NCBI GenBank assembly: GCA_905221615.1
Contig: CAJNDT010000602.1
Coordinates: forward strand, 927,444 to 991,443
Reading direction: 5' to 3'
DNA: 64,000 nt
Source of the DNA: Symbiodinium sp. CCMP2592
Taxonomy: Eukaryota > Sar > Dinophyceae > Suessiales > Symbiodiniaceae
Position numbers and translations under genes: made by a program. The notes under the pieces were generated by a model that did not search any database, was not told the origin of the DNA, and saw only the letters and a list, made by a program, of their open reading frames with translations. Shown piece after piece: positions 3,958-45,347 of the stretch (position 1 is the first letter of the stretch; each line of letters starts with the position of its first letter).

Positions 3958-4057
3958 NNNNNNNNNNNNNNNNNNNNNNNNNNNNNNNNNNNNNNNNNNN
4001 NNNNNNNNNNNNNNNNNNNNNNNNNNNNNNNNNNNNNNNNNNNNNNNNNNNNNNNNN
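3958..4057. other. Assembly gap, exactly 100 N
   Basis: One hundred consecutive N, the usual placeholder for a gap of unknown size. Copia sequence stops at its left edge and unrelated sequence starts at its right edge. The missing 5' end of copy 1 (about 0.5 kb of gag plus a 432-bp LTR) presumably belongs here, so the true gap is larger than shown. Confidence 0.98.
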
Positions 4058-5150: not shown

Positions 5151-5167
5151 GCTGCTGCTACTAACTA
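5079..5167. repeat. (CTA)n microsatellite, left half
   Basis: Near-perfect ACT/CTA trinucleotide repeats end in GCTGCTGCTACTAACTA. The same repeat resumes at 26160 on the other side of the copia element, so the microsatellite was the insertion target. Confidence 0.95.
5163..5167. repeat. Target-site duplication, left copy (AACTA)
   Basis: AACTA directly abuts the outer end of the 3' LTR and is repeated exactly at 26160-26164 outside the 5' LTR. Five base pairs is the usual duplication length for Ty1/copia integrases. Because the target is a CTA repeat, some of the match could be coincidental. Confidence 0.85.
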
Positions 5168-5599
5168 TGCGTGGGGGATTGATCTCGACTTGGTTGCTGC
5201 TCTCCCCACCAGAGCTGTAATGAATGTAGGTGTGGCTGGCTATCACTCTCCACAGACTGGACCCTGTCTCTCCCTCTTACTTCCACACGTGCGATCCTAT
5301 GCAGGCAGAACCGGCGGCCGTTCCTTTTGCACTCACTGCCGGCGGCGGTTCGTCTGTGCAACGGGATAGCTCTGATTGCTCAGGATAGAAGACACATCTA
5401 GCACTTAGCTATGGGCATTGACTTGAGCCAAACGTTGCGTTGGCGGTCACATAGAAAGGTAAAGACGAGGGATGCGTAGCATGCCCCCTAGAGTCGAGGG
5501 AAGCGTAGCGTGCCCCCTTCTCCTGCACTTTACACGGTCTTGCTCACAGCTCTTATAGTGACACCTTAGAACTTGACAAGGCATCGCAGTCCGTTCGCA
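5168..5599 (-). repeat. 3' LTR of the copia element (432 bp)
   Basis: Aligns end to end with 25728-26159 without gaps. The four differences are at 5243, 5398, 5466 and 5502. On the element strand it begins TGCGAACGG and ends CCACGCA. A short internal direct repeat of GCGTAGCRTGCCCCC lies near 5474-5517. Confidence 0.96.
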
Positions 5600-5605
5600 C
5601 CCCCC
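5600..5605 (-). promoter_or_regulatory. Polypurine tract (plus-strand primer site)
   Basis: Six G on the element strand (CCCCCC on the plus strand) sit directly against the TG start of the 3' LTR, where a polypurine tract is expected. The tract is short, preceded by CTCAT, so it is a minimal example. Confidence 0.6.
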
Positions 5606-5864: not shown

Positions 5865-8800
5865 TCATCTCCATCTTCGCGTGGTCGCAGGATCGCGGTC
5901 CCAGGGCCGGAGGTTTTCCTCTGGATACTGTTCCCGATGCTTTCCCTTGTCCTTGCCTTTGTTTCGGCCTTTGCCGGCGGTGTAGTCGTAGTAGGAGTTG
6001 GAGTTCCATCCTCCATGCTGCTCACCTCCGGTTCTCCCACGCCCTTTTGAAGGTCCCTTGGAAGAAGAAGCGCTTTCACGTTCCTCCGTAGTGACAGGCG
6101 TGTCCAGGATGGAAGTACCACCTGGAGGGAGATAGTCAGCGGCCGAAATGTGGTGTAGGGCTTCAGTACGCTTGGTCGTCGGGTTTTGCTGTCTCGCAGC
6201 CTTGGATCTGTTCAATCTGTCCATGAAATGCGCAGGCATTTGCACACTGTGGTCCACCAGCAAGCCGATGGTCTGGACTGACTGATCAGAATGAGTCAGC
6301 AGAATACCGACGGGGTCGATGTACAAGAAGTCCACTGGTCCAGTTGGCGTTGGTCGTAGGACTGAGAATTGTTGGTGTCCCGTCACCATTGGAATCACCT
6401 CGCACAGGACGTTCAGGCAACAAAAGTGCATAGCCTTCACATCTTCATCCCTTTCGCTCTTCAAGTAAGTAGTAGGGTTGAAGTTGTCCCTGCCAATTCC
6501 CATCATGTTGGCTCCCCGTGTAAGTAAAGAAAGCATCTGGTTCGTCCGGAAGCGCTTCAAGGTGTAAGTCCCGTTGGGATCATACTGCTTGAGGTTCTCA
6601 GGTTCCTTGGCAAAGCGAATGATCTCCTCATCAGTCACATCCTTGCTCACACCCGTTTCCCTATCCACTGCCGCCAAAGATCCCCACTTTCCAAGCACAT
6701 CATAGCGTTGGCCAAGTGCGAAACTTTCCCTCATCTGAAACAACGGCATAGTCGCCCACTTTGCGAATCCTGACCAAGCCTTGTAGATGGATCTGCATAC
6801 CACGTATGCCATGTACGAAAGAGCGGTCATGTTCGCGTCAATGCAATGGGCATTTCGCTTTCCAGAATAGTAGGATGGCTGCATGGCGGTACGTGCAAGT
6901 TGTAGCTCAGGATCGATGTTCAAAGACTGGCCGGTAACGAAGACGGGACGACGTTCCTGTGCAATTGCTTCTGGCACTGCGTCATCAAAGTCCTCTCCAG
7001 GCTCTATGTCCATTTCTTCATCAGGTTCCTGTTCTGGATCGTCCTCCGCGATGACAGATGGTTCTGGGATTTCTTCAGGTTCCGCAACGGTCTCTACCTC
7101 CATGGCTTCCTGCTCCTCCTCGGGCGCCTCAGGCACTGCGGCTGCTGCGGCTTCCATTGTTTGAGCAATGAAGTCACTGGGGATCTCCGTAGGAGTCTCC
7201 CGTTGTGGAGAACCTTGGTAATATCCGCTTGAAATGAACTGTGACCAGCAAGACGTACATCGGGAGAAACATGCTGGAACGATGTTGTAGCATGCCGGGC
7301 ATACCCTCATTCTCCGTCCATCCTCGTCTCTGCGTAGGTCTTCGGGTCGCCAATTCTTGATGACAAACTTGATTCCTTTGTCCATGTAGTGATGCCGAAC
7401 CGTGTTCTCCCTGTGGGACTCCAGGACAGTCGTGAGGTCTCGAATGATCTGCTCCTTGCTTGTGTCGTGGGGTCCAGGAGGCATCTCGCAAAGCAATTCC
7501 ATGATCTTGCTTGGCGTTCGGTATCTCTCGAACTCAGGAAGCAACGGTGATGCATTGTAGTCCAACACCAGCTCTTTCTCCAACCGTTCATCGTAGATCT
7601 TTTCCACCAGAGCGAAAGAGTGTGTATCTCGAGGATCAGGGACGCAAAACCATACCTCCTTGACGAAATGGAAAGGTATCGTTCGACCAACGATCATGAT
7701 GCCGCTGTCTGTGATACGTCCATCCTCTCGTGCAAGATCTTGCGATGGGACATGAAGGACCGCCAATGGCATGTGCTTGGCGTCTCGTCCATGTACTCGC
7801 ATCTTGGTCGTTGCGTTCCGGTGATCGAACGGCGCAAACACCCCCCAATAGCTGTGGAGTCTGCCACCTTGGTTGCCTCGGAATTGGCGCCTATGGTCGA
7901 AGTCCCCGTCGGGGTCCTCCGAACCAGGCATGATGCCTTGCGTGACAATGGAATCCAAGTTGCGGCATGCCGTAGCGTGGAACGCACCTCCAAGACGTTG
8001 CAAGAGGGTCATAGATGGAGATATTGCGAACCTGTTCTTGTCCAACTGAAGCAAGTTGTTCTGGGGATCTGAGTGCGCAGAGTGACCACTCGTAGCCCGA
8101 ACTGCCCATGGCTTCACCCAGCCGTTGCATATGTTCAGGTACCTCTGGCCATGCCGGCAATGATCGTTGTTCTGGATCTCCGTGATCTGGTCCTTAACCG
8201 ATACCAACCTGTTCGAACCTGCTGATCCAAGAACTTCCGTGCCGGGGTCCTTCACTCTCACACCCAGGAACTGCAACCGAATCTTGGCCTTGTTGCGTTT
8301 CGTGGCTGCAATCATGTTCCCCTGGAACAATAGCTGAAGTCTTTCATTGTACACTCTCTTCTTCTGTTGGTCATCGGTCCTTGAGACCCCTTCGGTGATG
8401 CGTCTGCTTTCATGGGTCCATAGTGGCTCATGCCTCACCAAGTCTTCGATCATCACCCATCCTCCTTCATCACATTTGATGACACTGTTGAATGCCACCT
8501 GGCACCTGTTGTCAAGCCATTCCGAGCCTGGGCGCCTGGCGATTCTGTGGCGCAAGTCAGATTGGATGCATGATAGCGCCCAATCCGCGTTCAGTCTGCG
8601 CTGACGGGTGATGTTGCGAAGGACAACTTCGTTCACGAGGTCCCACCGATTGTTGATGAAGCTTGCACCCTTGGTTGGGATCAGGTCGAGAATCCCGCAC
8701 CGGATTGGCCTTCCGCCGCCGATGGATTCATAGCCTGCATTGGTGTAGCTATGAGTGTTTTCATCGTAAGCAAAGCTAGGACGGTCTCCTCGTTGAGGTA

Positions 8801-11348
8801 GGCGTCGGTCGCGATGGTCCGAAAGCTGCTCAATGATGTCCACCACTCGCTGGCTATTCTCTGGTCCCGATTCCTGCAATGGTACGCCACAAGCATCATT
8901 TAGGCCCCGACGATTCTCCACATCCGTGCAGAGATTGTGTTTGTTCTCATAACGGATCAAGACCACATCACCCCGTACGGCTTCGCCTCCGCGTCGCGGT
9001 CGGGCTTTGGCCTTGGGTCGTCGGTCCGAGGATGCAACACTCACATGATCTGTGGTGTCAACGTCCATTGGCTCAGCCTCTTGTGTAGGTACTCGACGTG
9101 GATATCGAAGAAGACTTTCCTTGATAATCTGGACGCCTCGAAGTACCAGATCCCGGGTTGCAGCATTTTCTGTGCAATTGGACAGAGTGTGTAGATCACT
9201 GCCACAAGCGACACAGAACGTGATGCGGTCGCTTCCGACTGACATTTCGCCCTGAGCGAGTACGCCCACATAGTCCTGAAGCTGCGCGACAAATCCTTCA
9301 CGAATTGCATGCCTGGGATCAGGGCCTTCTGCACCTTGTTCTTCTTCGGGTTGCGCATCCACATCTACATCCTGTGCAGGTATTGGTGGAGCAACTGAGA
9401 ACCCTGGATCGTCCGTGACGTTGTCAGCGGCCTGTGTCTCGTCGGTTCTCGCAATCTCTACAGGGTAGATATCACCATCGACGATCACTGTGAAATCAAT
9501 CACGAGGTCAGCGGACATGTTGTTGACGATCTCAGCGACTGCTTCATTCTTCTTGGGCGGTGTCCTTTTGCGCGGGGAGTCAACCGTGATCAGCTCGATA
9601 GCTTCGGCCGACGCGTAGCGGAAGAATGATCTTTCGATTCCCCTCGCGCACGCATTTGCTCCCTCAAGGCCACCCCAATTCGGAAAATGACTTGGGTGTC
9701 TCATTGCAATTGTAAGAAGCCCGAGCGCCAGCTCCACTGTGTCACCCAGGAGCTCTTCCTTGGGCAAGACTGACCCTCTGTAGCATTCTTGGCGCTCTTC
9801 CGGAGTCAAAAGCATCCTCATGAAACCAGCATAAGCGCAGTTCCCGGCATCGTAGTAGCAGATGTAGCATGTCTTGCCTTCGGAGTCGTACCCTCTGTCC
9901 CACGCCAACTGTTTGGCCTTTCCCCATGCCGCGTACTCGATGGCCTGACTGGCTGTGATTCGGAGACCACCGTAGTGAGAAACCGTCTTGCCGATGTCTT
10001 CATAGACCATCTCTGCACAAACTTTGAGGAACTCCTTGATGTCCACGCGAGGATCCACGAATTGAAGCCTCAGGTCATAAAGGTGCTTTGCGCAAGCCAA
10101 GGTGTACTTCTGGGACGTGATCAAGTCATTGAAGGAGCCGATTTGATGCTGCATCTTCAAGGCTGAAGTATGCGCGCACCCAATGCAGTGTCCAGGATAC
10201 CCGTTTCCGGTCGGCTTGAAGAAGGCTTGTGCGTAGCACTCAGCCAACTTCATTGCTTCACATCCAGGGCAATAGAACGTTCTCCCTTTGACATAACCAG
10301 TGTTCAGGGTCGCATAGGTGTCGATCCTGAACCAGTAGTGCCTGTTGTCGTAGTAGGCTTCGGGAACGGTCATGGCGATGTCAAAATCCTGCCAGGTGAC
10401 TGTGGACGATTCAGCGACCGTGTCACCCTGGGCACCCGACCTGATCTGTTGCTGCTGTTCCCCCGTAAACCATGTCTGCGAAATCTTGGTGGACGTCTTG
10501 ACTTCACTCTTGTCCTCCCAAATCTCGACAAGCGACGGGTGAGCGACTGAGTCGGTTCGGACAGTTTCGTCCCATGAGCGAACTTTCGATGCCTCAACAA
10601 AGCACGTGGATACCATCTTCTCGCAGAACAGCTGCTTCTCGTAGATAGCGAGGCCCAATTTGAACCTGACCCGATTGTCCGGTGGTGGCACCTTTTCGAC
10701 TGACAGTGTATGCACGCCTGACGACGCATGTTTCGCCTGGCTATACATTCTTGACCAAAACGAAGATCCATGAATCACCACGCATGCTCGGGCCCGCAAC
10801 TCCAGTTCAATATACATTCCCAGCGCATGGAAACCGTTGAACATAGAAGCTTTCTGTCGAAGGTAATTGCTGGCTGCTCCTACGAACCGCAAGTCATGAT
10901 TGATGTTGACAATTGGAGGGCGCGTGGTACGCTTCCCTGCCGCAATGATAGGGTCAACGTACGTGACCTTGAGCTGTCGCTGCAAGTCAGCACGAATCGC
11001 TGCTCCGTCTCCGACCTCACTCATCGGAAATGATATGTTCTCGATGAGGATCGCCTGGAGAGACAGATGGTAATGCAACGTGACGGTTGCAAGCTGCTCT
11101 TCAGTCAAGCCATCCAATGTCTCATTCACAGATTCCAACGATCCCTTTGTGACTTGGAAGTTGTAGTTGGCACCTGCGGTGATCGACGGGCTCACAATGT
11201 AGATCTCACTCCATCCATGCATGACGAGATTTTCTCTCACTGTATGCGATGATCCTCTGGTCCTTGCGATCATGTCAAAGTCTTGGACGAGGATTGTGCA
11301 TTGAGAGCGCATAGTCGCGGCATCAGGCTTGCCACCCATGGATGGCAC
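5865..11348 (-). CDS. Copia ORF3: 1827-aa protein with Tpt1/KptA-like RNA 2'-phosphotransferase domain
   Basis: A single uninterrupted frame starting at MPSMGGKPDAATM. Residues ~920-1230 resemble Tpt1/KptA enzymes, which move an internal RNA 2'-phosphate to NAD+. I see an LRHRI motif (~932), a winged-helix-like segment GGWVMIEDLVRHE, RATSGHS (~1087) where the family has RANQGHS, AFHAT (~1123) for the HGT motif, GIMPG, and GRLHSYWGVFAPF (~1165). This retains candidates for the conserved Arg-His-Arg-Arg set. The N-terminal ~900 residues are unrecognised, with Cys pairs at ~363-391 (YCPGC, HCIGC). A CPAC...CTSC cluster lies at ~1363 and an acidic stretch at ~1390-1460. The C-terminus is rich in Gly, Lys and Arg and looks RNA-binding. 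The ORF lies inside the LTRs, so it is element cargo. How it is expressed, by subgenomic RNA or trans-splicing, is unknown. Confidence 0.8.
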   Translation of the reverse strand: MPSMGGKPDAATMRSQCTILVQDFDMIARTRGSSHTVRENLVMHGWSEIYIVSPSITAGANYNFQVTKGSLESVNETLDGLTEEQLATVTLHYHLSLQAILIENISFPMSEVGDGAAIRADLQRQLKVTYVDPIIAAGKRTTRPPIVNINHDLRFVGAASNYLRQKASMFNGFHALGMYIELELRARACVVIHGSSFWSRMYSQAKHASSGVHTLSVEKVPPPDNRVRFKLGLAIYEKQLFCEKMVSTCFVEASKVRSWDETVRTDSVAHPSLVEIWEDKSEVKTSTKISQTWFTGEQQQQIRSGAQGDTVAESSTVTWQDFDIAMTVPEAYYDNRHYWFRIDTYATLNTGYVKGRTFYCPGCEAMKLAECYAQAFFKPTGNGYPGHCIGCAHTSALKMQHQIGSFNDLITSQKYTLACAKHLYDLRLQFVDPRVDIKEFLKVCAEMVYEDIGKTVSHYGGLRITASQAIEYAAWGKAKQLAWDRGYDSEGKTCYICYYDAGNCAYAGFMRMLLTPEERQECYRGSVLPKEELLGDTVELALGLLTIAMRHPSHFPNWGGLEGANACARGIERSFFRYASAEAIELITVDSPRKRTPPKKNEAVAEIVNNMSADLVIDFTVIVDGDIYPVEIARTDETQAADNVTDDPGFSVAPPIPAQDVDVDAQPEEEQGAEGPDPRHAIREGFVAQLQDYVGVLAQGEMSVGSDRITFCVACGSDLHTLSNCTENAATRDLVLRGVQIIKESLLRYPRRVPTQEAEPMDVDTTDHVSVASSDRRPKAKARPRRGGEAVRGDVVLIRYENKHNLCTDVENRRGLNDACGVPLQESGPENSQRVVDIIEQLSDHRDRRLPQRGDRPSFAYDENTHSYTNAGYESIGGGRPIRCGILDLIPTKGASFINNRWDLVNEVVLRNITRQRRLNADWALSCIQSDLRHRIARRPGSEWLDNRCQVAFNSVIKCDEGGWVMIEDLVRHEPLWTHESRRITEGVSRTDDQQKKRVYNERLQLLFQGNMIAATKRNKAKIRLQFLGVRVKDPGTEVLGSAGSNRLVSVKDQITEIQNNDHCRHGQRYLNICNGWVKPWAVRATSGHSAHSDPQNNLLQLDKNRFAISPSMTLLQRLGGAFHATACRNLDSIVTQGIMPGSEDPDGDFDHRRQFRGNQGGRLHSYWGVFAPFDHRNATTKMRVHGRDAKHMPLAVLHVPSQDLAREDGRITDSGIMIVGRTIPFHFVKEVWFCVPDPRDTHSFALVEKIYDERLEKELVLDYNASPLLPEFERYRTPSKIMELLCEMPPGPHDTSKEQIIRDLTTVLESHRENTVRHHYMDKGIKFVIKNWRPEDLRRDEDGRRMRVCPACYNIVPACFSRCTSCWSQFISSGYYQGSPQRETPTEIPSDFIAQTMEAAAAAVPEAPEEEQEAMEVETVAEPEEIPEPSVIAEDDPEQEPDEEMDIEPGEDFDDAVPEAIAQERRPVFVTGQSLNIDPELQLARTAMQPSYYSGKRNAHCIDANMTALSYMAYVVCRSIYKAWSGFAKWATMPLFQMRESFALGQRYDVLGKWGSLAAVDRETGVSKDVTDEEIIRFAKEPENLKQYDPNGTYTLKRFRTNQMLSLLTRGANMMGIGRDNFNPTTYLKSERDEDVKAMHFCCLNVLCEVIPMVTGHQQFSVLRPTPTGPVDFLYIDPVGILLTHSDQSVQTIGLLVDHSVQMPAHFMDRLNRSKAARQQNPTTKRTEALHHISAADYLPPGGTSILDTPVTTEERESASSSKGPSKGRGRTGGEQHGGWNSNSYYDYTAGKGRNKGKDKGKHREQYPEENLRPWDRDPATTRRWR

Positions 11349-11349
11349 T

Positions 11350-11550
11350 GGATTTCGATTTTAATTGTCAATTAAAATCGAGTTTAATATCCGCCCGGAG
11401 GGCGGGCCGTGTCGGCCAGGGACATCAATTAACATCGATTTTAATACCTTCCAGGGTGACCTGACCAGGCACACGGGTGTATTTAAATCGATTTTAATAC
11501 ATATGGACGGCCACTCCGCCCGGGAGGTATTAAAATCGATTTTAATACTT
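11350..11550. repeat. ATCGAT palindrome array, ORF3-proximal cluster
   Basis: About five copies of the palindrome TTAAAATCGATTTTAA or close variants, at ~11351, 11369, 11431, 11484 and 11530. They lie directly upstream of the ORF3 start on the element strand and are separated by GC-rich spacers. The position suggests a regulatory or RNA-structure role; that is inference. Confidence 0.75.
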
Positions 11551-11669
11551 TTTGCTTGGAGGACGGTTTCCAGAGCGGGTCAAGGTTTCGGGAAGAGTTT
11601 CGGGTTGACGTCCTCGGGTTTCACAAGAGCTGTGGGTTCAGGTCTACGGGCTTTGCAGCACTCTGAGGG

Positions 11670-12205
11670 TAGACGGTCTAGGGTTTAAGGTTTAGGGTTG
11701 AGGTCTGTGGGGTTAATAGTGGGTGTCGGTTTCAGGTTGTCGGGCTTCACAGGGCTCCTTGTTGGGTTTAGGGCGCAGGGCTTTGGGTTCAGGTCTTTCG
11801 GCTTTGCAGGACTCTGAGGGCACTGTAGAGCGTTGAGGGCTTAAGGTCTAGGGGTGAGGTCCGCGGAGCTCGGTCCTTGGGTTTCAGGTTCACGGCTTTG
11901 GGTTCAGGTCTTTCGGTTTGCAGCACTCTGACGGTAGAGAGTTTAGGGTTCAGAGTTTAAGGTTTGTGTTCAGGTCTCAGCACTCTGAGCGCAGAGGGTT
12001 CAAGGTTTAGGGTTTGTTTGGCATTGTCTGTTTCTTCACTCTGCTGCGCGCAGTCACAGAGTGGTCAAAGGAAAAACAGAGACAGGGTTTAGGGGTTGGG
12101 GTTTAGGGGTTGGTGTTTAGGCTTAGGGTTTAGGGTTTAGGGTTTAGGGTTAAGGGTTAAGGGTTAAAGGTTAAGGGTGAAGGGTTAAGGGTTTAGGGTT
12201 ACATT
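11670..12205. repeat. Degenerate TTTAGGG telomere-like repeats
   Basis: Many GGTTTAGGG-like words, becoming near-perfect at about 12123-12200. Plant-type TTTAGGG is the telomere repeat reported for dinoflagellates. This is an internal block within the retrotransposon, not a chromosome end. Confidence 0.8.
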
Positions 12206-12257
12206 GGGGCTACAGGTAAACCCTCAAAACCCCAAATCCCCAAGCCCTGAAGCTCTA

Positions 12258-12351
12258 CTTGGGGGTTCATGGGACTTAGTAAGTACAGTTATAGGTACCT
12301 TAACTGGGCTTATTTATAACCATAGTTACTAAGTCCCATGAACCTTTAAGT
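12258..12351. repeat. MITE-like foldback element (94 bp)
   Basis: The ends are inverted repeats of about 26 bp with three mismatches, sharing GGTTCATGGGACTTAGTAA, around a short AT-rich centre. A related element is at 53228-53333 (shared TCATGGGACTTAGTAAGTA). No coding capacity; the transposase source is unknown. Confidence 0.75.
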
Positions 12352-12465
12352 ATAGCACCTGGGTACGAAAGCCTAGATCACGAAACCGTAGGGTTGCTAT
12401 CGCCCCCTTAATGCTTTAAACGGTCCCAAGTCCTGTCATCCAGGTGTACAAATGCGTCCCATATC

Positions 12466-12715
12466 AATTAAAATCGATTTTAATACCCTGTGCAGGGGTC
12501 CCAATAGCCAAATCAATTAAAATCGATTCCAAGTGTTGTCACGAGGCGGACCAATTAAAATCGATTTTAATACCCTGTGCAGGGGTCCCAATAGCCAAAT
12601 CAATTAAAATCGATTCCAAGTGTTGTCACGAGGCGGACCAATTAAAATCGATTTTTATACCCTGTGCAGGGGTCCCAATAGCCAAACCCATTAAAATCGA
12701 TTCCAAGTGTTTCCG
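12466..12715. repeat. 87-bp tandem repeat (about 2.8 units) with palindromes
   Basis: TACCCTGTGCAGGGG recurs at 12484, 12571 and 12658, an exact 87-bp period. Each unit contains two ATCGAT-centred palindrome copies spaced 49 and 38 bp apart, plus the inverted repeat CCCTGTGCAGGGG. Degenerate copies continue at ~12740, 12788 and 12842. The cluster lies just downstream of the ORF2 region on the element strand. Confidence 0.9.
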
Positions 12716-12822
12716 AACCCAGAACCTCTGGACCAGGGTATTAAAATTGATTTCAAGTCATTGGCAAGAGAACATTTGAGAAGGTATTAACATCGATTTT
12801 AATTGTTTCTCGAAGCTAATCC

Positions 12823-13236
12823 CTAAAACCCGCAATGAGGTATTAGAATCGGTTTTAAAACATAATTGAAATTGAAATCCAGACTTATTTTGCCACCCAT
12901 ACCCAAACTATTGCGAAATCCGTTCAGCGTGTTCATGGTGTTGATCCTTGCTTCTGCCGGAATTTCATCGTTGTCGACAAGATCGCTGTCTGCCTCGATC
13001 ATCACTGCCGAGGTAAGCATTGGAGGAGAAGGAAGATGCACGCACGATACCAATGCCAATGCATGGTACAACCGCGAATACATCCGTAACCACATCTTCG
13101 TGCTCAGCTTCACGTAGACCTTCAGGTTGAGACCCTTGTCGTCACTTTGAGAGACGGAACGAATCCTTGCCAAGTAGGTCACCAGTCTTCTGACGTAATG
13201 CTGAATCGGTGTGGTCCCCACGTCGTGGTTGGCCAC
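12823..13236 (-). pseudogene. Copia ORF2, C-terminal segment
   Basis: Open for 137 codons in the same frame as the N-terminal segment (stops at 12823 and 13792 differ by a multiple of three). It overlaps the end of the middle segment, which reads another frame. Composition is protein-like (HYVRRLVTYLARIRSV near the start), but I recognise no family. Together the three segments look like one ancestral protein of about 600 residues whose middle third is shifted. Confidence 0.5.
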
Positions 13237-13856
13237 TTTGGCGTCTCATCCTTTGGCGTCTCATCAATGGACAGGTGGGTTTTCATCTCGTCTTGATCAC
13301 GGGTCGTCGCCAGCAAGCTCGAGCGACAGCCCTTTTCATCGATGTTGACATAATGGTACCAACTTTCCTGAGCGCCAGCGGGGATTGGAGCTTCCTCCCA
13401 TGTCGGTTGCGATGGTTCCTCTTCCGGTTGCGAAGTCGATGGTTGTGGAGGAGGTGCCGCAGAAGATGACGACGCCGATGCCGTTGCCTCGTCCGTCCTT
13501 GCCCTCTTTGGTCCGTGGCTAGGGGTGGCTCGAGGCTCAGCAGCGGATCCTTGCGATTGTCCCGGCGTTCTTCCATGCTCAGGGTGCACGATTCCTTCCG
13601 GTTCGAGGTTGCTTGCCGTAGGCATCGCAACTCTCCCCGTTGAGTATACCCAGCTAGGATGCCGTTGGAGATTGGGCGGAAATAGGCCATCATCTTGCAT
13701 AAGCGGACTTGGTGCCCCCATCTGTTGGAATTCTGCTTCCCATATGCTCAACGTGGCGCGTTTGGTAGAGCAGTCGACCACATACCCAGATTCAACTCCG
13801 CACCGTAGCGCCATCGTTGTTCGCTGCACATTCTTGGTTGTAGGTCCGTAGTCCAT
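13179..13856 (-). pseudogene. Copia ORF2, middle low-complexity segment
   Basis: 225 codons rich in Ser, Pro, Glu and Gln, including a PSTSQPEEEPSQP stretch typical of a disordered linker. It overlaps the N-terminal segment by 65 bp, one base out of phase, and the C-terminal segment by 58 bp. The two phase changes cancel out. Either two indels damaged the gene, or the shift is programmed; the sequence alone cannot decide. No recognised domain. Confidence 0.5.
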
Positions 13857-14628
13857 ATCCAGTGTGTTTTGCGAACATGTACATCAGCTTGCACACCCTA
13901 CATAACGTAGGCTCCGCCAACAGGTCTGATTGGTCAGGTGCTCTACCCGACATAGGCAACTTGTGGTAGTAGTCCTGATTCACCGTATACCATTGTTGAA
14001 TTCTCGTGTCTGTCACAGTCTGGTAGGGCGTCTCCACGGAGTTGATGAGAACGGCGAGGTTGTAGTACCCGTCCGCACTGACGATGTTCCTTGTTGCAGT
14101 GTTCAAGTCGAACCGAACTTGCTTTCGTTCTTGTTCCAGTTCAACCACAGCCAATTTTGCATCATCGCGGATCACTTCCTCATCCACCATAAACCTGGTG
14201 ATGGCATTGAACTTCCCCTCGTAGTCAGCAACAATGTGTTTGAGACCTCCACCAAACTTGATGACCATGGCGAGTATCTCCCCATAGGGTTTGTCCATGT
14301 ACTCCTCAGGGGCAGCAAATAAGCAAGCTTTGAGGATTTCTCGGACTCGAATGGAAAGATCCCCTCCTGGCGACAGATTTGCACACGTGAACAGCAAGAC
14401 CAACGGAGGTGCTTTGAACGCTGCCCATGTGCGAATGAGATCATTGTCGACCACTTTGTCTTTCGTAATCTTCGGCGGGAGCGAAACGCTCTGCGACGAA
14501 TCCCCAGAATACATCTCCAGGAACTTGTGGAACTTCAGAAACGTTCGCATCATCCCACCAGACGGGAAAACTTCTTCGTGGTCCACTCCTTCGAAGGCCA
14601 GCTCGTAGGCATTGTAGCTTTCAGCCAT
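13792..14628 (-). CDS. Copia ORF2, N-terminal segment, unknown protein (278 aa)
   Basis: Starts at MAESYNAYELAFEG, 112 nt downstream of the gag-pol stop on the element strand. It is a mostly helical-looking acidic protein, with no zinc motif, no signal peptide and no hydrophobic segment. A Cys pair (CRVCKLMYMF) lies near residue 250. The position between pol and the spacer is where some copia lineages (for example SIRE-type) carry an extra env-like ORF. Nothing here resembles a membrane protein, so I do not call it env. Function unknown. Confidence 0.6.
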   Translation of the reverse strand: MAESYNAYELAFEGVDHEEVFPSGGMMRTFLKFHKFLEMYSGDSSQSVSLPPKITKDKVVDNDLIRTWAAFKAPPLVLLFTCANLSPGGDLSIRVREILKACLFAAPEEYMDKPYGEILAMVIKFGGGLKHIVADYEGKFNAITRFMVDEEVIRDDAKLAVVELEQERKQVRFDLNTATRNIVSADGYYNLAVLINSVETPYQTVTDTRIQQWYTVNQDYYHKLPMSGRAPDQSDLLAEPTLCRVCKLMYMFAKHTGYGLRTYNQECAANNDGATVRS

Positions 14629-14740: not shown

Positions 14741-17700
14741 TTAGTTGTTCCTTAGTTGGGGCTGTCTAATAGCCCCTTCATCAGCGTCTACACACTGATG
14801 TTGCTGCCATGCAATGTCCTCAGATTCATGTGCAACATGACTGACACTGACATGAGCTCGAACAAGGCTGCGAACATTCCTCGCAATTGACCGCCATGAG
14901 ACATCAATGCGCTGCGACAAACTGCTCTTCGAATCATGGTCCAAGCAATCATCCGGTCTCATCACCAAACGGTCCGCTTCAGGCATGTTAGAGAACATGA
15001 TCCTGCGTCCACCACCATCGCCATCAGCACCAACACGATCATCAACCTTAACCTTCGTCACCTTGCCACTTGAAACAAGAGCATGCAACTCTGGCCAAGA
15101 CCAACATGAACATGAAGAAGGCATGTCAAGCGAAAAATAGACGTCGGAAAATTCCGCACACTTCTTCAGCAGGCGTTTGAGAGATTTCAAGACACTTCTG
15201 AAAACCTTGTACTTCCCACCAGAACGTTTCTCACCCCCCACGCAAGCCCCTTCACTACTTCCAGGACCAGCACCTGATCGCAAAAGCGATGCCACGAATA
15301 GCACAGGTGTGCGCAGGTCGTTCCGGCACGCATCCTTCATTGTACCGATAAGGTTGTCCTCATCGGCTTTGGAGCTGATCAGCTCCTTGCAAGTTATGCG
15401 AGAGCAACCCTTAGTGGACTTAGGCACGGCGTAGCCATTACCCAAGCCACAGAGGTCAACAATCATGCGGTCTGGCTTTCGTCCACCAGCCTTCGACGGC
15501 ATGGCTACCAATCTCCCATCGCCAGTTGCCTGAAATTTCAAGGCTTTAAGCAATCTTCTGGAGATTTGGCTAGTCAACTCGCATTTATCAGATCGATCCT
15601 TAGCGTCCGAATCAGTCATGTGCAAATGTTTGGACGAGCACACATCAGACGACTTAGGATGCAGCGCGACGTTTGCGGCAATGTACTCCCATTCATCCTT
15701 GCAGTAGCCGAGCTCAACGGCGGTTTCGGGAGATACAGGATCCCGAAAGGTATAACGTTGCCCGTGAGTGCACCCTTGGATCTTGATGCTCTTCCACATG
15801 GCATCTTCCTGAAGTCCCTTGTACTGCTTGGTTTCCTGGACTGGTACTCGAGGAGGCACTTCGATGATGATTTGGAACCCCCATGATGCCGCTCTGCGCG
15901 CAATTCTTTGGACGACCTCCCCCCATGGGTAGTCTGTCCGCAATTTGGCCCTTTCAGGGTTGTCAGCGATTTTCCGACTCAGCCACGAATTCTTGCCCAA
16001 CACCCCTGCACCAATGAAGATTACGGAGTTAGGGTTGTCTTTCCTTGCTTCCACCACATCAAAGATGTAGGCGCACATGGCGTCGTCAACTTCTCGCCCC
16101 ATACTCAGAACATTTACTTGCAGCCCAGGGTCGTAGTGAGAATCGGGAGCATGCTGGGCGATGCAATCCTTGCCTGGAGCATACTCATTCCACCAGTTCT
16201 CCTCATCGACTCCTATCAATGTCCATACCGTCACTGCCTTTGGAGCATCTTTGATAGTGATACGGTACTTCCACCGGCTGTAAGGATTCTTGTAAGCATG
16301 GACCAACCTTCCATCGTGGTCGAGGAATTGGATCACCAGACCCTCCTTGGGCTTGTTTTCGGCGAAATTGACCACGTGAGGCACAATTGCTCCATCATAT
16401 CCTTGATATTCCCTTTTCTGTTCCGCCGCATCATGCCATACATCTTCGTACACCGACGACCATACATCTTCGTACACCGACGACCATTGGTCATAACCAA
16501 ATTGAGAGGCTTGACTTTTGGACTGGCCGTTGAAACAAAATCCCTGGTGTAATGTAAAGCCCTGGTACCCCCCATGGATGGCACGCGCCAGTGTGACAAC
16601 CACCGCTCGCCATTTGGCGGGCAGGGCGCGCACATAAGACTGGCCTAGAGGCGGTTCAGGAGGAGGCAAAAACGGCGGCGCAAGGACGTCCGCAATGGCG
16701 GCGGGGCGCAAATGCCCCCGCACCGGATGGTACTGAAACACAGCACGCTCCACGTAGCGGTCGAACTTGCCCGGTGTGTCAAGGATAGCAGCACGATCCT
16801 CCATCTGGTGCCACTGCCCTTCACGAAGAATCCAAGTCGACCGAAGGTAACGACCAGGCGGCAACGCAGAAGGCGGCCCCCGCAACATGCGCGGGAACTT
16901 GACAACCAGGATGGGGTCCACACTGTCATGTTCTTGCAAGCCTTCCTTACTCGACAATCCAGCGCGATACAACACCTGAGGGAGGATCGGCGTCTGCGTG
17001 TAAGGAAAACAAGGCACCTCGCTCTTGAACGAGTAGTGCTGCTGACCCTTCTCATCCGTGCTTTGGGTATGAGTAGGTCGCATCAGATCCATAATCTCTT
17101 GGGAGCCGATGAGATCCGGCGGAAAGATGTTGATGAGCTGACACGCATGTGTCCAGGACACGGAATCCTTGAACGACTTGGTGTGTATGTCCGCTGACAT
17201 CTTGGCAGTGACCTCATAGGCAAGAGAAACGTAACCTTCCTGAAAGATAGAATGCATCCATCCAATGCAGATACCGTGGGTACGTTCCAAGTGACGCATA
17301 GTCGGATTCTTGCCCGTGCGAATCACCCCGATCATGGTCTGGTTGTCGTCGTAGAAGACGAAGTTGGGGTCTTGCCCCCCAAGCTGCTGCCACAACGTGA
17401 TAGCAGGCAATCCAAGACGTGACATGGCAAAGTCGGCCGCGACAATCTCGGCCTCAGGTGTGGAATGACTCAAGCATCCCTGCCTTTTGCTAAGTCCCGC
17501 CAAGGGAAATCGTGTGTGAGAACCTTGAATGTGCAAGTGAGCACCGGAGGTAGATTTCAAACTTTCTCCACAACCTGCATAGTCCGCATCTGCAAACAGC
17601 CCGATGGACGAGTCCTCCAAGGAGTTCCCGACCCATCCAATCATCATGTGATGTTTGGACTGGTGCACATAGGCCATGAGATGATGAAGAAGAGCATCCT

Positions 17701-20700
17701 CCTTCTTGGTCCATTTCGTGATCTTGCGTGCGAGATTGTTGATACTGCGCAGAAGATCAAAGCGGCAAATGCGCGCGGCATAAAGCAATTTCATGAGAAT
17801 GCTGGCTGCCTGCGGAGCAAGTGCGCCGCGATTAGCCTCGTTGATTTCCTCTTCCTCGGGCGCCTTGGGAATAGGTGGAGGCGGAACGAGCCGACCATCC
17901 TTATCAACAGGCATGGTGTGTCCACACCACGTGCATCGATGGCTTTTACCTGACTGTGCCGGAGCGCGAGCTGGGTGATTCTTAGTCTCCTCAGCCGGAC
18001 TCGGCGATGGTACCGTCTTGAATTTTGTCGGATCGAACCCAGTCACGTCGCAGTACTTCTTGACTGTCATGTCCAGGTACGTCTCCATGTCGTAGGTAAC
18101 GGTCTGCACCTTCGTTTTGTCATGCAACGTTGCCTCGCCCTTGGAGATGCGACAACCCAGATACAAGCCCAGCGGCGTTTCCTCTTCCAAGCGAAGTTCC
18201 TGGCGCAGCATGTCCCAGCCCTTGGGTAGATTCTCTTTGGGTCCTGCCATCTTGAGATCATCCACGTAGATGACAAGTAAGAGCTTCATTTGCGGGTGGA
18301 AATACAATGATGGCCATTCATCGCCAATCGGCTTGAATCCTACTTTCTGTACCGCGGTGTGGCAATGTTGTTCCCACATGGTTCCTGCGTCAGGATGTCC
18401 ATATAGAGCTTTGATCAGGCGACATACCGGCCTACGGAATTTGTGCCGTTTCGCAGATGGATGCCAGGCTTCATCAGGCAGTTCAACCCAACATGGAGTG
18501 CCCGATAGTCTCGCCTGAATGTATGCTTGGATAGCATCCGCCATCTGGACATCGTTGCCAGGAAGGCATCCGTAGTAATCTGCCCACCGTGAGGCGTCAA
18601 ACGTAGCCGGGGAATTCCCCAAATCCTGAAACAATGCGGCTTCCATATTCTGGTCTTTGACCTGATCACCGAGTAGTACACCTCGCCCTTTGAACTTCCT
18701 GGCAGGATCGTCCTCTTTGAGCTGATAGTTCTTCTCGTATATCAGTCCATGTACTCGCGCCATGTGTACTTTCTCACCTTTCTTCTTTGCCTCAGCGACG
18801 ACGTCGTCATATTCACGCGTAGTTGAGAAGTCAAACACCTCTTGGTCCCACAATCCCTTCCATTCTTTCATGAAAGCTTCCATGGCCTTGGGATTGTTGA
18901 TCATCTCCTTGCGTGTGACGGGTCGAGTGACCATGGCATTGAAGCACGATCCTCCTGCATGGTTCTTTTCCCGATGTACGTTTCTGTGAGAAGTCGTACA
19001 CGGCATAGAAGGAATCCAGTTATCATCCATGACCATATGCGCCGGAACGGCCGGCACGACATCTGCCAAGAATTGTTCCTGTGTGTATTGATCCACATAG
19101 GACTGTGCCCATGACCAACCATCGTCGTCATCAATGGACACGTTGAGTTGCAGATCAATTTCTTCACATGGGACAATCTTGGGAAAGATCATGTTGTCTA
19201 AAATCTTGGTGACTATCTTCTTTCCTATCACAGCCTTCTTCCGGTCTTTCTTGGCAACTCGAGCTTTGTCTCGCTTTTCTTTCTTATATGCTGCCTTCTT
19301 CTCCGTTTCGCTCATCTTCTTCCACGCTTCCGGAGAATAAGAATGGATAGGTCGCCGTGTAGGAAGTGTTCGTCGACCATCACTTCGGATCTTGTACGGA
19401 ACTCCCCTTTTGTCGATCTTGCAGGCTTCACCGTCATCGGTGAGATATACAATGCCGTCCCCTTTCTTCCCCGTACTCCAATGTTCAATCTCCTCGGGAG
19501 CCAACTTCTTTTCTTTCAAGATCTTGATAATCTCTCCAGGTTCTTCGATGTCTCCTTCGGGGATGAGTCTACCGGTTGGACCGACTTCGCGGGGCGATCG
19601 TCGATCTTTCCCAGTGACCTTTGGTTCAGAAGGAGGCGGTGCTGCACGTAGACCCAGCTCTTCGTCTAGTTCTTCGAGTCTTTTGTCTCCTATGGCATCA
19701 ATAGCTTCATGTTCTGCTGACTTGAAGACTTCGCCGGACGGCTCCGTCTCTATGTCAGATGGATCTATGTCCTGTAAGTCAGGATCTTCTCCGGGATCCG
19801 GTGGAGGAAGAAGTCCATTTGGATCATCATCATCCCCGTCGCCACCATTTCCTCCGGGCGGACCGTCATCACCGTCATCGACGTCTTTTATCTCCTTGCC
19901 AGCGAGGTCAACGTTGTCCCTGAGTCCCTCAATGGTTGAATTCATCCTTTCGTACTCGGCTTTCAGGGGAAACGTTATCTCCTCTGGGAAGTAGATAACT
20001 TCTGTCTCGTACGGTCTCATCAACTTCCTGGGAACAGATGCGTCCATCGACAAGTTCGCGTTGGCAAATTCCTTCATATCCCAAACGCGATACTTCTTGG
20101 ACCACCCTTGACCAGCAGTGATGATGTATCCGGCAAAAATGCCTGGAATCCCTTTTGGATCGAATTTGTTGCCATATGTCTTCGGCCTCGTGTCCGTTGG
20201 CTTAAAGAAGACCTTGGCCCCAAAGGGTATGGCTTTTCCCTCGAAGTCCTTTCCAGTCATTCGCTTCCATGCTGAATCACCATCGCCCTCCACGTCTTCA
20301 ACGTTGAGGTTCTGCATCACGCAATTAAGCGCAAAGGACCAGTATTGAGCGGGCAATCCGGCGTGTAGCATGGATGCTGCGACTGTGTTGATCACTTCTT
20401 GATTTGATCGTTCAGCGAGTGAATTGTTACTGGGTTTCCCTGGAAGGGAATGATCTATCACGATCTTCAACTGCGCCATAGCTGAATCGAACTCTGGTGC
20501 TTCATCACTATACGCCATATGAATCTTGCGTCTTCCCATAAGGCGTCTGATGGCCATGACGACTTCATCAGTGCTCCTTGAAGCCGTGGGAATCGCTGCG
20601 ATCATTTTGGTGGCGATGTCTCTGATAACTAGAACTTCACGTGCTCCGTCATCGAGTCCGATGCCTGCTTCGGCGGCCTTGCGCATGTCAAGGAAGTCGA

Positions 20701-23700
20701 ACGTCACAAGATCTCCCCAGTGTTTGATCACACGTTGAAACGCACCTCGTTGTGTTCGCAAGTGCTTCATCTTCGCGCGTATGCACGATTCGCAATATGG
20801 ATTGCGGTAGCGATGAGTACACAGATGTGCCAACGTCTTAGCTTCGGCTTTCAGTGTCCCGACTCTGGCCTTGCGGCTCGGCGCACCGTCGCCTTCTACA
20901 TCAATGATCACCTCATCGTCACCATCCAATGGAATTTCACCCACTCCTTTTCCTTCGTCGTCGTCCGGAGGTCGTCCGGCCTCGGACTCTGGTACTTCTT
21001 CTATAGGAGGTTCTTGGGGTTCAGGATCAGGAGGTCGTTCGTGATCGTCACCTTCTTCTTCTGCTTCAATCTCGCTCGGTGCAGCTTCAGCGGCAGCTGC
21101 GACGCTGACGTCAACGTTGCCCGCTGTCAACGCACCCTTGAAGATTTCGGTGATCGCTTTGGCCTCCGGATCATCATGAACCAATGACTTGGAACTCCCG
21201 GCACGAACGTACGGGATGTCACCGTTCACGAACAGAGATATTCTCTTGCCCTGCGGGTTGATCATGAATGGTTCCCTTCCGGGTGGCCACACAAACCCGT
21301 AGTTGAAGTTCATACATCTCTTGCCTATGGAAAGCACCGACGGTGTGTCGTCCAACACATAAGCGTTGATCGGTTCCTCGAACGACTCAGTCTGGAAATT
21401 CGACACGAGATCGGTATCGGTGATTCCATTGGCTGTCTGAAATGATATGGGCTCTGGAGTCACGAGTGTTTCGAGACTGTGCTTCTCGATCTTCTTCTGA
21501 GATATGAGGTCATGACCACACCCAGTGTCCATGAGAAACTTGATCTTCTTCTTGAGGATGACTGGTTGAACCATGCATTTGAATAAGCCCTGATTGATGA
21601 TCCGTTTGCTGTGTGCAGCATCGAGTTCGCGCTCAACGATGGAATCTTCACCGTCGTAGAACGAAACTTCTTCCACTCGAGACGTTCCTGGGATTCGTAC
21701 GAATGAAACTCGATCTCCGCATTGATCATCATCGTCGTCAACCATGTCTCTCATGATCTGTGCCCTCAATCTCGCTTTGTGCTTGGCGAATTCCAAGCTC
21801 ACGGCGCGGTCCTCATCATTGATAAACGCTTCCATGTCGACGTACTTCACCTTCCGCTCTTTGTCTTTCTTCGATCGTCTAGGACACGAAGAAATGAACT
21901 TCACGTCGTTGGCAAATGTCACATTGCGCTTTATCACTTTCCGGGTCGACGTAGTCGTTCCCGAGGATTCGTCATCTGTTGAACAATCCGAATCAGCGTC
22001 GCTGTCAACGGACGGACAATCTGACTCCTCCTCATCCTGCCTTGAAGATCGCTTCCATATAGCCGGAGCTGATGGATTCCACCTTCGACACAATCTGATG
22101 GCGGGTGCCGCAGGGAGTGCCTTGGCCTTGGCATTCGGCTTCGCTGGAGCTGCCTTCGCTTCGGATTTAGCTTTAGCTTTTGCCTTTGGTTCCGGAGCTG
22201 GGGTAGCTGCTGCCTCATGCTTGAAAGGACAATTCTCTCTTGAGCACGAGCCTGTGTTCTTGAACGAGTAGCATATCCTGTTTCCTCCTCCTCCAGATGG
22301 ACTTGGAGTTCTCGTCCTCGGCGTGAAGGGTCGCTCTGGAGTCTTCTTCGAGTGACTGAATGGACACTTATCGCCATTTCGACACCCTGCATCTGTGAAA
22401 TGGAACTTGCAGCGGATTTGCTTCTTGCTTTTGTCACCTCTGTTGTCCGCTGACTCACTCCTCGTCTTCTTCTTGGGCTTTGGCTTGGTCTTCGCATGAC
22501 TCTTCGCTTTGCTTTGAGGTAGTACAGGTGTTGCTTTATCCGGCTTGGTCGGCGAAGCCTTGACCTTTGCGGATGGAGCTGCGTTAGGCGTAGGTTTCTC
22601 AGGTACCTTGGCCGGTGCAGCAAGCAAATCCTTGCCCTCAAGCATCTGGCGCAAGCCAATTTGGGTCTGAGTGAGATTTGATTGTTCTCGTCTCCGCATG
22701 ATAGTACGATCAATGATCTTCATCAGGTTGTCGTACGATCGGTCTTCATGATTGTAGGGCAAGTGTTCGTAATGCATGCCCAACTCCATCTTCATTGCGG
22801 GCGAGTCCTTGATCTTGCTGTACAAGCAATCACGGAGAGCTGTTTTGGATGGAATGTCCTCTGGTCTCATCCGTCCCAGAACTTCCAACCACGTCTGCTT
22901 GAACGTATGAAGCTTGTTGTCGCCTTGGTACTGGAGCTTCACCAAATACTCAAGAGTGATGATCATGTCAAGACGATCATGCGTTCGAAAACTTTCATAC
23001 ATCATCGCAATGACTTGTCGTCCTTTGATGATCTTCACGTCAGGCCTGCTGATGTAATCGTTAGCCTTCCGGTTCACCTCAAGGTACAGGTCAGCTGATT
23101 TGTCACCACCGGCACGTAGCATTGCGACCATGGCGATCCCCAATTTGACGTCTATGCTCTTGAACTTCTTGTGTCCTGAATCATTCAATGCTTCGACATC
23201 AGGGAATGGGTTGAACGCTGGTGCCAGCCATAACATCCAGTCCTCATGATGTGGGTCGGCTGATGCCCCTAAGACATTGGCCGTGCACACGGATCGCCAG
23301 TTATTGAGATGAGTGAGAGTAGGCCATGGAGGAACAGTCACCTTGTCGGCTTCCCTCCTGGAAATTCTCACCTCTGTGACTTCAGGATCCGCATCTCCAT
23401 CAGGATCACGTGCATGCGAGCCAGGATCCGATTCAGGCTTGCCTCCACCGCTCTTCTTCTTATCATCATCATCGTCAGGCGGGTCAGGAGGGTCATACCC
23501 CGTGCCGGTTCCTTCATCGTGCTCTCCATCTTCGTTCTCGTCGCCACCCTCGTCACCGTCACCGTCTCCATTATCCTCCTGAATCGTTTCAGCGAATAAC
23601 CTCCATTCATCACGATCAGCTCTGAGACGTTGCTCGGCTTTCTGGGCCTTGAGTACTTCGCTTCGCAGATCGGCAATCTTCTCCTCGTACCGTTCCGCGA

Positions 23701-25705: not shown

Positions 25706-25727
25706 GAGCCGCGTACGGCTGATAACC
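25706..25727 (-). promoter_or_regulatory. Candidate primer-binding site, half-tRNA type
   Basis: Directly inside the 5' LTR the element strand reads GGTTATCAGCCGTACGCGG. It lacks the TGG start expected for priming from a tRNA 3' CCA end. It resembles the Drosophila copia site, which pairs with the anticodon arm of a cleaved initiator tRNA and begins GGTTATGGGCC. The tRNA species is not identified. Confidence 0.5.
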
Positions 25728-26159
25728 TGCGTGGGGGATTGATCTCGACTTGGTTGCTGCTCTCCCCACCAGAGCTGTAATGAATGTAGGTGTGGCTGGC
25801 TAGCACTCTCCACAGACTGGACCCTGTCTCTCCCTCTTACTTCCACACGTGCGATCCTATGCAGGCAGAACCGGCGGCCGTTCCTTTTGCACTCACTGCC
25901 GGCGGCGGTTCGTCTGTGCAACGGGATAGCTCTGATTGCTCAGGATAGAAGACACATATAGCACTTAGCTATGGGCATTGACTTGAGCCAAACGTTGCGT
26001 TGGCGGTCACATAGAAAGGTAAAGATGAGGGATGCGTAGCATGCCCCCTAGAGTCGAGGGACGCGTAGCGTGCCCCCTTCTCCTGCACTTTACACGGTCT
26101 TGCTCACAGCTCTTATAGTGACACCTTAGAACTTGACAAGGCATCGCAGTCCGTTCGCA
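25728..26159 (-). repeat. 5' LTR of the copia element (432 bp)
   Basis: Pairs with 5168-5599 without gaps (4 mismatches, about 99% identity). On the element strand it starts TGCGAACGGACTGCGATGC and ends CCCCACGCA. It should hold the promoter and RNA start, but I cannot place a TATA box with confidence. Confidence 0.96.
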
Positions 26160-26164
26160 AACTA
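26160..26164. repeat. Target-site duplication, right copy (AACTA)
   Basis: Identical to 5163-5167 and adjoining the outer end of the 5' LTR. Confidence 0.85.
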
Positions 26165-30185: not shown

Positions 30186-30202
30186 CTCGCCACCCCTAAA
30201 GG

Positions 30203-30606: not shown

Positions 30607-30607
30607 T

Positions 30608-34851: not shown

Positions 34852-34955
34852 CAGGAGGACAGGGGTGTGGACAGGCTGGCCTTCAACAGAGGCGTCCAGA
34901 CTGAGAGGAAGGCCACACGTGACTACTCGACTGTTGGCGGAAAAAACCCCCGGCC

Positions 34956-35321: not shown

Positions 35322-35342
35322 AGCTGGTTCCTGGAGGATGCG

Positions 35343-40482: not shown

Positions 40483-40495
40483 GCGCCGATGCCAA

Positions 40496-44756: not shown

Positions 44757-44785
44757 AAAGCTGCAGTGCACATTGCCCAGATCCC

Positions 44786-45092: not shown

Positions 45093-45347
45093 ACGTGTGT
45101 TGGGCTGTCACAGACTTTGCTGGCGGAGGGCTGGCCTATCTCATCTCACATGGAAGAGTCAGTCGTCCATCCAGCGCAGGTCCTGGCTGCCTGGCCAGGG
45201 CACGTCCTCCCTCTTCTTGTTCCGGAAGTACAGGCACGCAGCTTTCATCTGCCTGTGCGTGCGGGCCGCCGCCCGAACCAGCTCCCAGTCGCTGTTGAAT
45301 CCCAGCCGCACGGTGGAGGACCGACCTCGTCGCTTGCCATTTTGCTC

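What the first reader, a model, noticed from the sequence alone, without database searches (positions are those of the whole stretch)
5865..11348. A Tpt1/KptA-like RNA 2'-phosphotransferase domain carried by an LTR retrotransposon
The sequence shows, in order, LRH, a GGWVMIEDL winged-helix-like block, RATSGHS, AFHAT, GIMPG and GRLHSYWGVFAPF inside an intact 1827-aa ORF flanked by matching LTRs and a target-site duplication. Tpt1/KptA enzymes normally finish tRNA splicing by removing a 2'-phosphate using NAD+. I know of no retrotransposon described with such cargo. The family call is from motif order only.
Basis: partly seen in the sequence, partly recalled or inferred. Interest (0 to 1): 0.88.

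Follow-up and report, generated by a model that had tools for sequence, protein, structure and literature searches.

The report
Retrotransposon carrying RNA-repair enzyme domain
A copia-type jumping gene, probably from a coral-symbiont-like alga, has an extra gene whose middle part is a distant relative of Tpt1/KptA, an RNA-repair enzyme; its key active-site residues are kept in related sequences, so the element itself may process RNA chemically.

Summary
The finding holds. Window 5168-26159 (minus strand) is a ~21 kb Ty1/copia LTR retrotransposon: 432-bp LTRs (4 mismatches), TAGTT target duplication, 3640-aa gag-pol. A third ORF follows gag-pol, and its middle is a Tpt1/KptA-type domain: Pfam PTS_2-RNA 29.4 bits (cut-off 26) for residues 900-1240; profile-profile E 1e-7 against nine KptA proteins, 0 of 200 shuffles as good. 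[quoted passage not shown] 42/44, 44/44).

Two corrections. The 1827-aa frame is not an intact gene: a 2490-aa predicted relative shows that ORF3 starts at 14628 and here carries frameshifts, an apparent deletion and a ~1.55-kb insertion. And it is not a one-off cargo: 66 related proteins were found, three of the nine long ones also carrying pol or pol-flank sequence.

No fold could be computed, so activity rests on sequence. Most likely ORF3 acts on RNA by NAD+-dependent phosphate chemistry. A bolder idea is healing of a half-tRNA primer. My searches found no published retrotransposon with this domain.

The parts
5168..5599 (-). 3' LTR (432 bp, TG...CA)
   Evidence: 428 of 432 identical to the 5' LTR
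25728..26159 (-). 5' LTR (432 bp)
26160..26164 (-). target-site duplication TAGTT, 5' side
   Evidence: flank ends ...gtagtagtt
5163..5167 (-). target-site duplication TAGTT, 3' side
   Evidence: flank starts tagttagtag
25716..25727 (-). putative primer-binding site GGTTATCAGCCG, directly after the 5' LTR; its complement reads like an anticodon arm ending at nt 40
   Evidence: reading as half-tRNA site is inference
5600..5605 (-). run of six G directly before the 3' LTR, possible (short) polypurine tract
   Evidence: the role is inference
14741..25663 (-). gag-pol, 3640 aa: CCCH zinc finger and RVT_2 (above Pfam cut-off), aspartic protease and integrase SH3-like (below cut-off), RNase H-like region (my reading, no Pfam hit)
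   Evidence: DTG 1379, YVDD 2466
13792..14628 (-). start of ORF3 (278 aa, ATG at 14628)
   Evidence: 192 of 267 aligned positions identical to P0001 1-267
12890..13830 (-). continuation of ORF3 in other frames (frameshifts, apparent deletion)
11340..12889 (.). about 1.55-kb insertion in ORF3 with imperfect inverted ends and an 11-bp flanking repeat (ATGGGTGGCAA)
5865..11339 (-). C-terminal three quarters of ORF3 (open frame listed as 5865-11348, 1827 aa)
   Evidence: 75% identical to P0001 671-2490
9174..9215 (-). CCHC knuckle-like motif CVACGSDLHTLSNC (residues 712-725)
   Evidence: pattern present in 7 of the 9 long relatives P0001-P0009
7614..8591 (-). Tpt1/KptA-like domain (residues about 920-1245): RNA lobe and NAD lobe
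8547..8552 (-). R933-H934, tetrad positions 1 and 2
   Evidence: 42/42 and 42/42 rows with a letter
8097..8099 (-). R1084, tetrad position 3 (AVRATSGHS)
   Evidence: 45/45
7971..7979 (-). H1124-A-T1126, NAD-contacting H-x-T
   Evidence: H 42/44, T 44/44
7860..7862 (-). R1163, tetrad position 4 (GRLHS)
   Evidence: 38/40
7248..7301 (-). CxxC...CxxC motif (residues 1350-1367) after the Tpt1 domain

Best explanation
The element is a Ty1/copia LTR retrotransposon with a recurrent third ORF (2,490 aa in one uninterrupted predicted relative) after gag-pol. ORF3 carries a Tpt1/KptA-type ADP-ribosyltransferase domain at its centre, between CCHC knuckle-like and CxxC motifs. Shown here: family resemblance, both lobes, active-site residues kept, linkage to pol sequence. 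Inferred: the protein binds nucleic acid, is made in active copies, joins the element's RNA particle, and uses NAD+ to remove 2'-phosphates from (or ADP-ribosylate phosphates on) RNA the element needs, i.e. genome RNA or primer tRNA. The confidence below is for identity plus retained active site in an element-encoded protein; I put the phosphate-directed RNA chemistry at about 0.4. The first two rivals are special cases of it.
For: PTS_2-RNA 29.4 bits, above the cut-off of 26; 9 of 10 domain rows match PTS_2-RNA at E<=0.1. hhalign against 9 KptA: prob 94.3, E 9.9e-8, 0 of 200 shuffles as good, reversed profile 12.1. That alignment covers 96 columns from the AVRATSGHS stretch on; the RNA lobe came out when run alone: score 34.2 over 35 columns, prob 76, against best shuffle 16.4; the rest alone 55.0 against 21.7; 100 shuffles each. 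Tetrad and HxT 42/42, 42/42, 45/45, 38/40, 42/44, 44/44 of rows with a letter, window included; all six lie among the 42 of 410 columns with >=95% identity, p 8e-7 if columns were drawn at random. These residues are the essential or NAD-contacting ones in Tpt1 (PMC6333775 passages; human TRPT1 tetrad mutants inactive on 5'-P RNA, PMC6582358 passages). Linkage: P0005 has an RT YVDD and the Tpt1 motifs in one predicted protein; P0006 and, weakly (25% identity, E 2e-6), P0008 begin with the late part of the window's gag-pol.
Against: The whole ORF scores 23.8 bits, below the Pfam cut-off. No Tpt1 chain in the PDB is hit by the single sequence, and the family profile reaches only E 0.032. NCBIfam KptA models score 15.3 bits or less against cut-offs of 231-239. 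Of 10 of the 57 further relatives scanned, 7 match PTS_2-RNA at E<=0.1, none above cut-off. In the 37-row alignment A4 with many fragments the tool's near-invariant list holds R1084 and T1126 but not R933, H934, H1124 or R1163; in the 10-row alignments all six are listed. No structure was obtained. ORF3 of this copy is broken. No expression data, and no DNA of relatives for a dN/dS test. A long stretch before WAVRATSGHS has no counterpart in the KptA set.
Confidence: 0.85

Rival explanations
1. Primer healing: the element primes reverse transcription with a half-tRNA cut in the anticodon arm. If the cut leaves a 2',3'-cyclic phosphate, opened to a 2'-phosphate, the Tpt1 domain removes it and gives a clean 3' end for RT.
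For: The sequence directly after the 5' LTR is GGTTATCAGCCG; its complement CGGCTGATAACC reads as stem GG, loop C-U-GAU-A-A, then C39 C40. Hemiviruses such as copia start cDNA from the 3'-OH of tRNA nt 40 in the anticodon stem-loop (PMC1181622 passages). No TGG (complement of CCA) lies in the 12 nt after the LTR, and no LTR match to the complement with up to 2 mismatches was found.
Against: The anticodon would be GAU, not the CAU of initiator Met; no dinoflagellate tRNA set was at hand, and ARAGORN finds no tRNA in the window. Copia and Ty5 have no Tpt1 domain of their own (general knowledge). A 12-nt pattern is short.
Confidence: 0.15
2. End capping: the domain ADP-ribosylates 5'-phosphate ends of element RNA (or cDNA) and shields them from nucleases or sensors.
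For: Human TRPT1 and S. coelicolor KptA ADP-ribosylate 5'-phosphorylated RNA in vitro, and in TRPT1 this needs the tetrad (PMC6582358 passages); the tetrad is kept here.
Against: Nothing in the sequence separates this from 2'-phosphate removal; no macrodomain or other partner was seen in the Pfam scans of the element's ORFs.
Confidence: 0.15
3. The domain is an inactive Tpt1 fold reused only as an RNA-binding part of a particle protein.
For: It is divergent, with long insertions, and sits among motifs typical of nucleic-acid binding.
Against: Catalytic and NAD-contacting residues are among the most conserved of 410 columns, which binding alone would not require.
Confidence: 0.12
4. Accidental passenger or assembly artefact: a host gene or another element lies between two copia copies, and the Tpt1 link to the retrotransposon is chance.
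For: The scaffold has a 100-N gap at 3958-4057 beside a second gag-pol copy; this ORF3 is broken.
Against: LTRs and TSD enclose ORF3, and the gap lies outside the element. P0005, P0006 and P0008 show the same pol-to-ORF3 order, P0008 by a weak match. P0001 gives ORF3 as one predicted protein.
Confidence: 0.03

Closest known systems
Tpt1/KptA RNA 2'-phosphotransferase (PF01885; CthTpt1, PMC6333775, passages)
   Same: Order of LRH, GGWV/GW, K.R, (V/I)RA..GHS, H.T, R, R motifs; Arg-His-Arg-Arg tetrad and HxT; RNA lobe and NAD lobe both match.
   Different: Set in the middle of a very long retrotransposon protein, with added stretches; very divergent (26% identity over 96 aligned columns). Activity untested.
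KptA domains in viral proteins (nidovirus and picorna-like virus polyproteins, Bodo saltans virus, sawfly baculoviruses, jumbo phages; PMC9503650, passages)
   Same: A selfish genetic element carries a KptA domain, in some cases within a large polyprotein.
   Different: Those are RNA or DNA viruses, and the paper's text has no hit for retrotransposon or retroelement; here it is an LTR retrotransposon of the copia type.
SymbioLINE-Dnmt and SymbioDIRS-Dnmt3 (PMC5890265, passages)
   Same: Symbiodinium retrotransposon families with a conserved extra nucleic-acid-modifying enzyme domain, multi-copy.
   Different: The enzyme is a DNA methyltransferase and the elements are LINE/DIRS; that paper says Copia elements lack any DNMT domain and, in the passages seen, mentions no Tpt1.
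Hemivirus/copia elements with half-tRNA priming (PMC1181622, passages)
   Same: Copia-type pol; the PBS complement fits an anticodon arm ending at nt 40.
   Different: Primer tRNA not identified; those elements have no Tpt1 ORF (general knowledge).

Membership tests
Tpt1/KptA (PF01885) | Arg-His-Arg-Arg tetrad | tested here: met
   R933, H934, R1084, R1163 kept in 42/42, 42/42, 45/45, 38/40 of rows with a letter (70 rows from 67 sequences, window included; 25 to 30 rows have a gap there)
Tpt1/KptA (PF01885) | H-x-T NAD-contact motif | tested here: met
   H 42/44, T 44/44
Tpt1/KptA (PF01885) | Both RNA lobe and NAD lobe present by profile | tested here: met
   each piece alone beats 100 of 100 shuffles (I cut the profiles before WAVRA/IRA, so the second piece holds the end of the RNA lobe too); the uncut comparison aligned only the later 96 columns
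Tpt1/KptA (PF01885) | Pfam gathering score | tested here: inconclusive
   29.4 and 28.3 bits for the domain alone but 23.8 for the whole ORF; cut-off 26; none of 10 further relatives above it
NCBIfam KptA equivalog (PRK00819) | curated cut-off | tested here: not met
   15.3 bits against 239, so not an orthologue-level KptA
Tpt1/KptA (PF01885) | winged-helix plus ART fold | not tested
Tpt1/KptA (PF01885) | NAD+-dependent 2'-phosphotransferase activity | not testable with these tools
   needs an enzyme assay
Ty1/copia LTR retrotransposon | LTR pair with TG...CA and TSD | tested here: met
Ty1/copia LTR retrotransposon | PR-IN-RT order with RVT_2 | tested here: met
   RVT_2 2410-2508 at 33 bits (cut-off 31.6); protease 1371-1418 and SH3_retrovirus 1814-1864 in copia order but below their cut-offs; DTG 1379, YVDD 2466
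Hemivirus (half-tRNA priming) | PBS complementary to an anticodon arm up to nt 40 | tested here: inconclusive
   pattern fits, tRNA identity unknown

The most novel reading that the evidence does not exclude
The first known LTR retrotransposon lineage that encodes its own RNA end-healing enzyme: the Tpt1 domain of ORF3 removes the 2'-phosphate from a cleaved half-tRNA (or from nicked and re-joined element RNA) with NAD+, so that reverse transcription can start or pass, making transposition depend on NAD+.
Probability: 0.2. Interest if true: 0.92.

Novelty: new variant of a known kind. Interest (0 to 1): 0.75.

Why it matters
Tpt1/KptA genes are found in many organisms where their role is unclear (PMC6582358, passages). 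A selfish element that keeps its own copy with an intact active site points to a job in RNA processing during retrotransposition, and makes the question testable: mutate the tetrad and follow cDNA and primer ends. It also adds another kind of enzyme, beside the DNA methyltransferases of PMC5890265, to the genes known in dinoflagellate retrotransposons.

Tried and rejected
Rejected: chance motif order; assembly accident; TGG/CCA-type priming directly at the LTR edge and LTR self-priming (besides the site itself, 5 matches with 2 mismatches, none in an LTR; 6 in all against 4.1 expected).

Led nowhere: viral contigs and genome contigs hold no relative by this search (27 and 25 pattern matches, none confirmed). 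A homologue search from P0006 found only itself among 1628 candidates, although one search shows relatives exist, so the word filter has limited reach. Among the 57 hits of the profile search (3480 candidates) I recognised no canonical Tpt1 (by listing; I read the sequences of 6 of the 57), so the source of the domain (host gene or virus) is unresolved. Single-sequence PDB search: one weak unrelated hit. ORF3 outside the domain and the 278-aa ORF: no Pfam family. Literature searches: retrotransposon with Tpt1, PTS_2-RNA, ADP-ribosyltransferase domain or KptA, dinoflagellate with Tpt1 and tRNA splicing, and LTR retrotransposon with additional ORF and Symbiodini: 19, 0, 1, 3, 0 and 1 papers; by title none of those listed (15 of the 19) describes such an element. 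Searches served background. Chen et al. on heat-activated Symbiodinium copia elements is not held, so not read. Passages of PMC11453091 and PMC7472051 gave background only.

Full report
What is there. On the minus strand, window 5168-26159 is one LTR retrotransposon of 20,992 bp. The LTRs (25728-26159 and 5168-5599) are 432 bp, differ at 4 positions, begin TG and end CA, and are flanked by TAGTT on both outer sides. A run of six G lies just before the 3' LTR and GGTTATCAGCCG just after the 5' LTR. The element lies in a TAG microsatellite, so the 5-bp duplication alone is modest evidence; with the LTR pair it is enough.

Coding content. Gag-pol (14741-25663, 3640 aa) has a CCCH zinc finger and RVT_2 above the Pfam cut-offs, and protease and integrase SH3-like matches below them, in copia order, with DTG at 1379 and YVDD at 2466. 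ORF3 starts 112 nt after it in another frame. The 1827-codon frame of the finding is the later part of ORF3. P0001, a 2490-aa predicted protein 75% identical to it, matches first the 278-aa ORF at 14628-13792, then pieces in other frames, then, after a gap of about 1.55 kb, the 1827-codon frame. The gap is an insertion with an 11-bp flanking repeat and imperfect inverted ends. So this copy's ORF3 is broken, while at least one uninterrupted predicted relative exists.

The Tpt1 call. Residues 900-1240 give PTS_2-RNA at E 1e-6, 29.4 bits against a cut-off of 26; the whole ORF gives 23.8. Nine of ten domain rows match that family at E up to 0.1, and 7 of 10 further relatives (of 57 found), none above cut-off. 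I aligned nine KptA proteins (E. coli and eight from the plasmid collection, one of these unannotated) and compared profiles: E 9.9e-8, probability 94%, over 96 columns from AVRATSGHS on. Column-shuffled versions never came near (best 28.7 against 58.4 in 200; reversed 12.1). Cut in two before WAVRA/IRA, the first piece (RNA lobe with LRH and GGWV) scores 34.2 over 35 columns at probability 76%, best shuffle 16.4; the second 55.0, best shuffle 21.7; 100 shuffles each. By sequence alone the PDB gives Tpt1 chains as the top four of five profile hits, but only at E 0.032 and weaker; NCBIfam's KptA models are far below cut-off. This is a distant member, not an orthologue.

Active site. The essential tetrad of CthTpt1 is Arg18-His19-Arg68-Arg121, with an HGT motif at the NAD ribose (PMC6333775, passages). 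Aligned to KptA these are R933, H934, R1084, R1163 and H1124/T1126. In 70 rows from 67 sequences (window included), counting only rows with a letter there, they are kept in 42/42, 42/42, 45/45, 38/40, 42/44 and 44/44; 25 to 30 rows have a gap at each, many hits being fragments. All six fall in the 42 of 410 columns with at least 95% identity to the window residue, while the median column is 56%. In the 37-row alignment A4, which holds many fragments, only R1084 and T1126 of the six are on the near-invariant list. Two labels's table (G and H of GHS) were off by one; H1089 is 95%.

A family, not a passenger. Search from the domain gave 9 proteins among 1473 candidates, search from its profile 57 among 3480. 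Three bear organism names, all Symbiodinium (P0005, P0017, P0030); the rest are unnamed, mostly ENA, a few EukProt. The assignment of the window to a dinoflagellate is my inference from these. P0005 joins an RT to the Tpt1 region in one predicted protein; P0006 and, by a weak match, P0008 begin with the late part of our gag-pol. A CCHC knuckle-like motif precedes the domain in 7 of 9 long relatives. The clusters of P0007 and P0006 hold 166 and 80 member sequences, though the contig count given is 1; this suits a multi-copy family but does not prove it.

How it may work. The inference with most support is an RNA-directed, NAD+-dependent enzyme in the element's particle. Three jobs are open: removing 2'-phosphates from nicked and re-joined RNA; capping 5'-phosphate ends, as human TRPT1 and a Streptomyces KptA do in vitro (PMC6582358, passages); or healing the primer. 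For the last, the complement of the primer site, CGGCTGATAACC, reads like an anticodon arm that ends at nucleotide 40, where copia-type hemiviruses start cDNA (PMC1181622, passages). The apparent anticodon GAU does not fit initiator Met, so the tRNA is unresolved, and the link to Tpt1 is speculation that can be tested.

Novelty. KptA domains are known in some viruses, a few of them within polyproteins (PMC9503650, passages), and DNA methyltransferases in Symbiodinium LINE and DIRS elements (PMC5890265, passages). My searches listed no retrotransposon with a Tpt1 domain; subscription papers are mostly not held, so this is not proof of absence.

Limits. No fold, no expression, no DNA of relatives for selection tests; the machines for structure prediction and genome search did not complete.

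Noticed in passing
window 14741-15500 (minus strand), P0006 1-520, P0008 1-290: Between the RNase H-like region and ORF3 the element encodes a further region; in P0006 and P0008 it has EFCC, LPCTGG and FELP motifs that look methyltransferase-like (my reading; no such Pfam hit). In the window copy these motifs are changed.
   Followed up: partly
window 11340-12889: About 1.55-kb insertion inside ORF3 with imperfect inverted ends, 11-bp flanking repeat, CCCTAAA-like telomeric repeats and an 87-bp tandem repeat.
   Followed up: partly
window 1-3957, gap 3958-4057: Part of a second copy of the same gag-pol, 98.7% identical to 21164-25120, ending at a 100-N scaffold gap.
   Followed up: no
window 27996-40495 (minus strand): Several long ORFs of what looks like a non-LTR retroelement: RNase_H (above cut-off) and weak Exo_endo_phos matches at 30608-32161.
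   Followed up: no
window 50919-53189: Tandem array of a 398-bp unit, 5.7 copies, 90% matches.
   Followed up: no
window 45348-46175 (minus strand): ORF with a PPPDE peptidase domain (PF05903, E 1.1e-15); the stretch 44726-45789 is 85% identical to 59438-60458.
   Followed up: no
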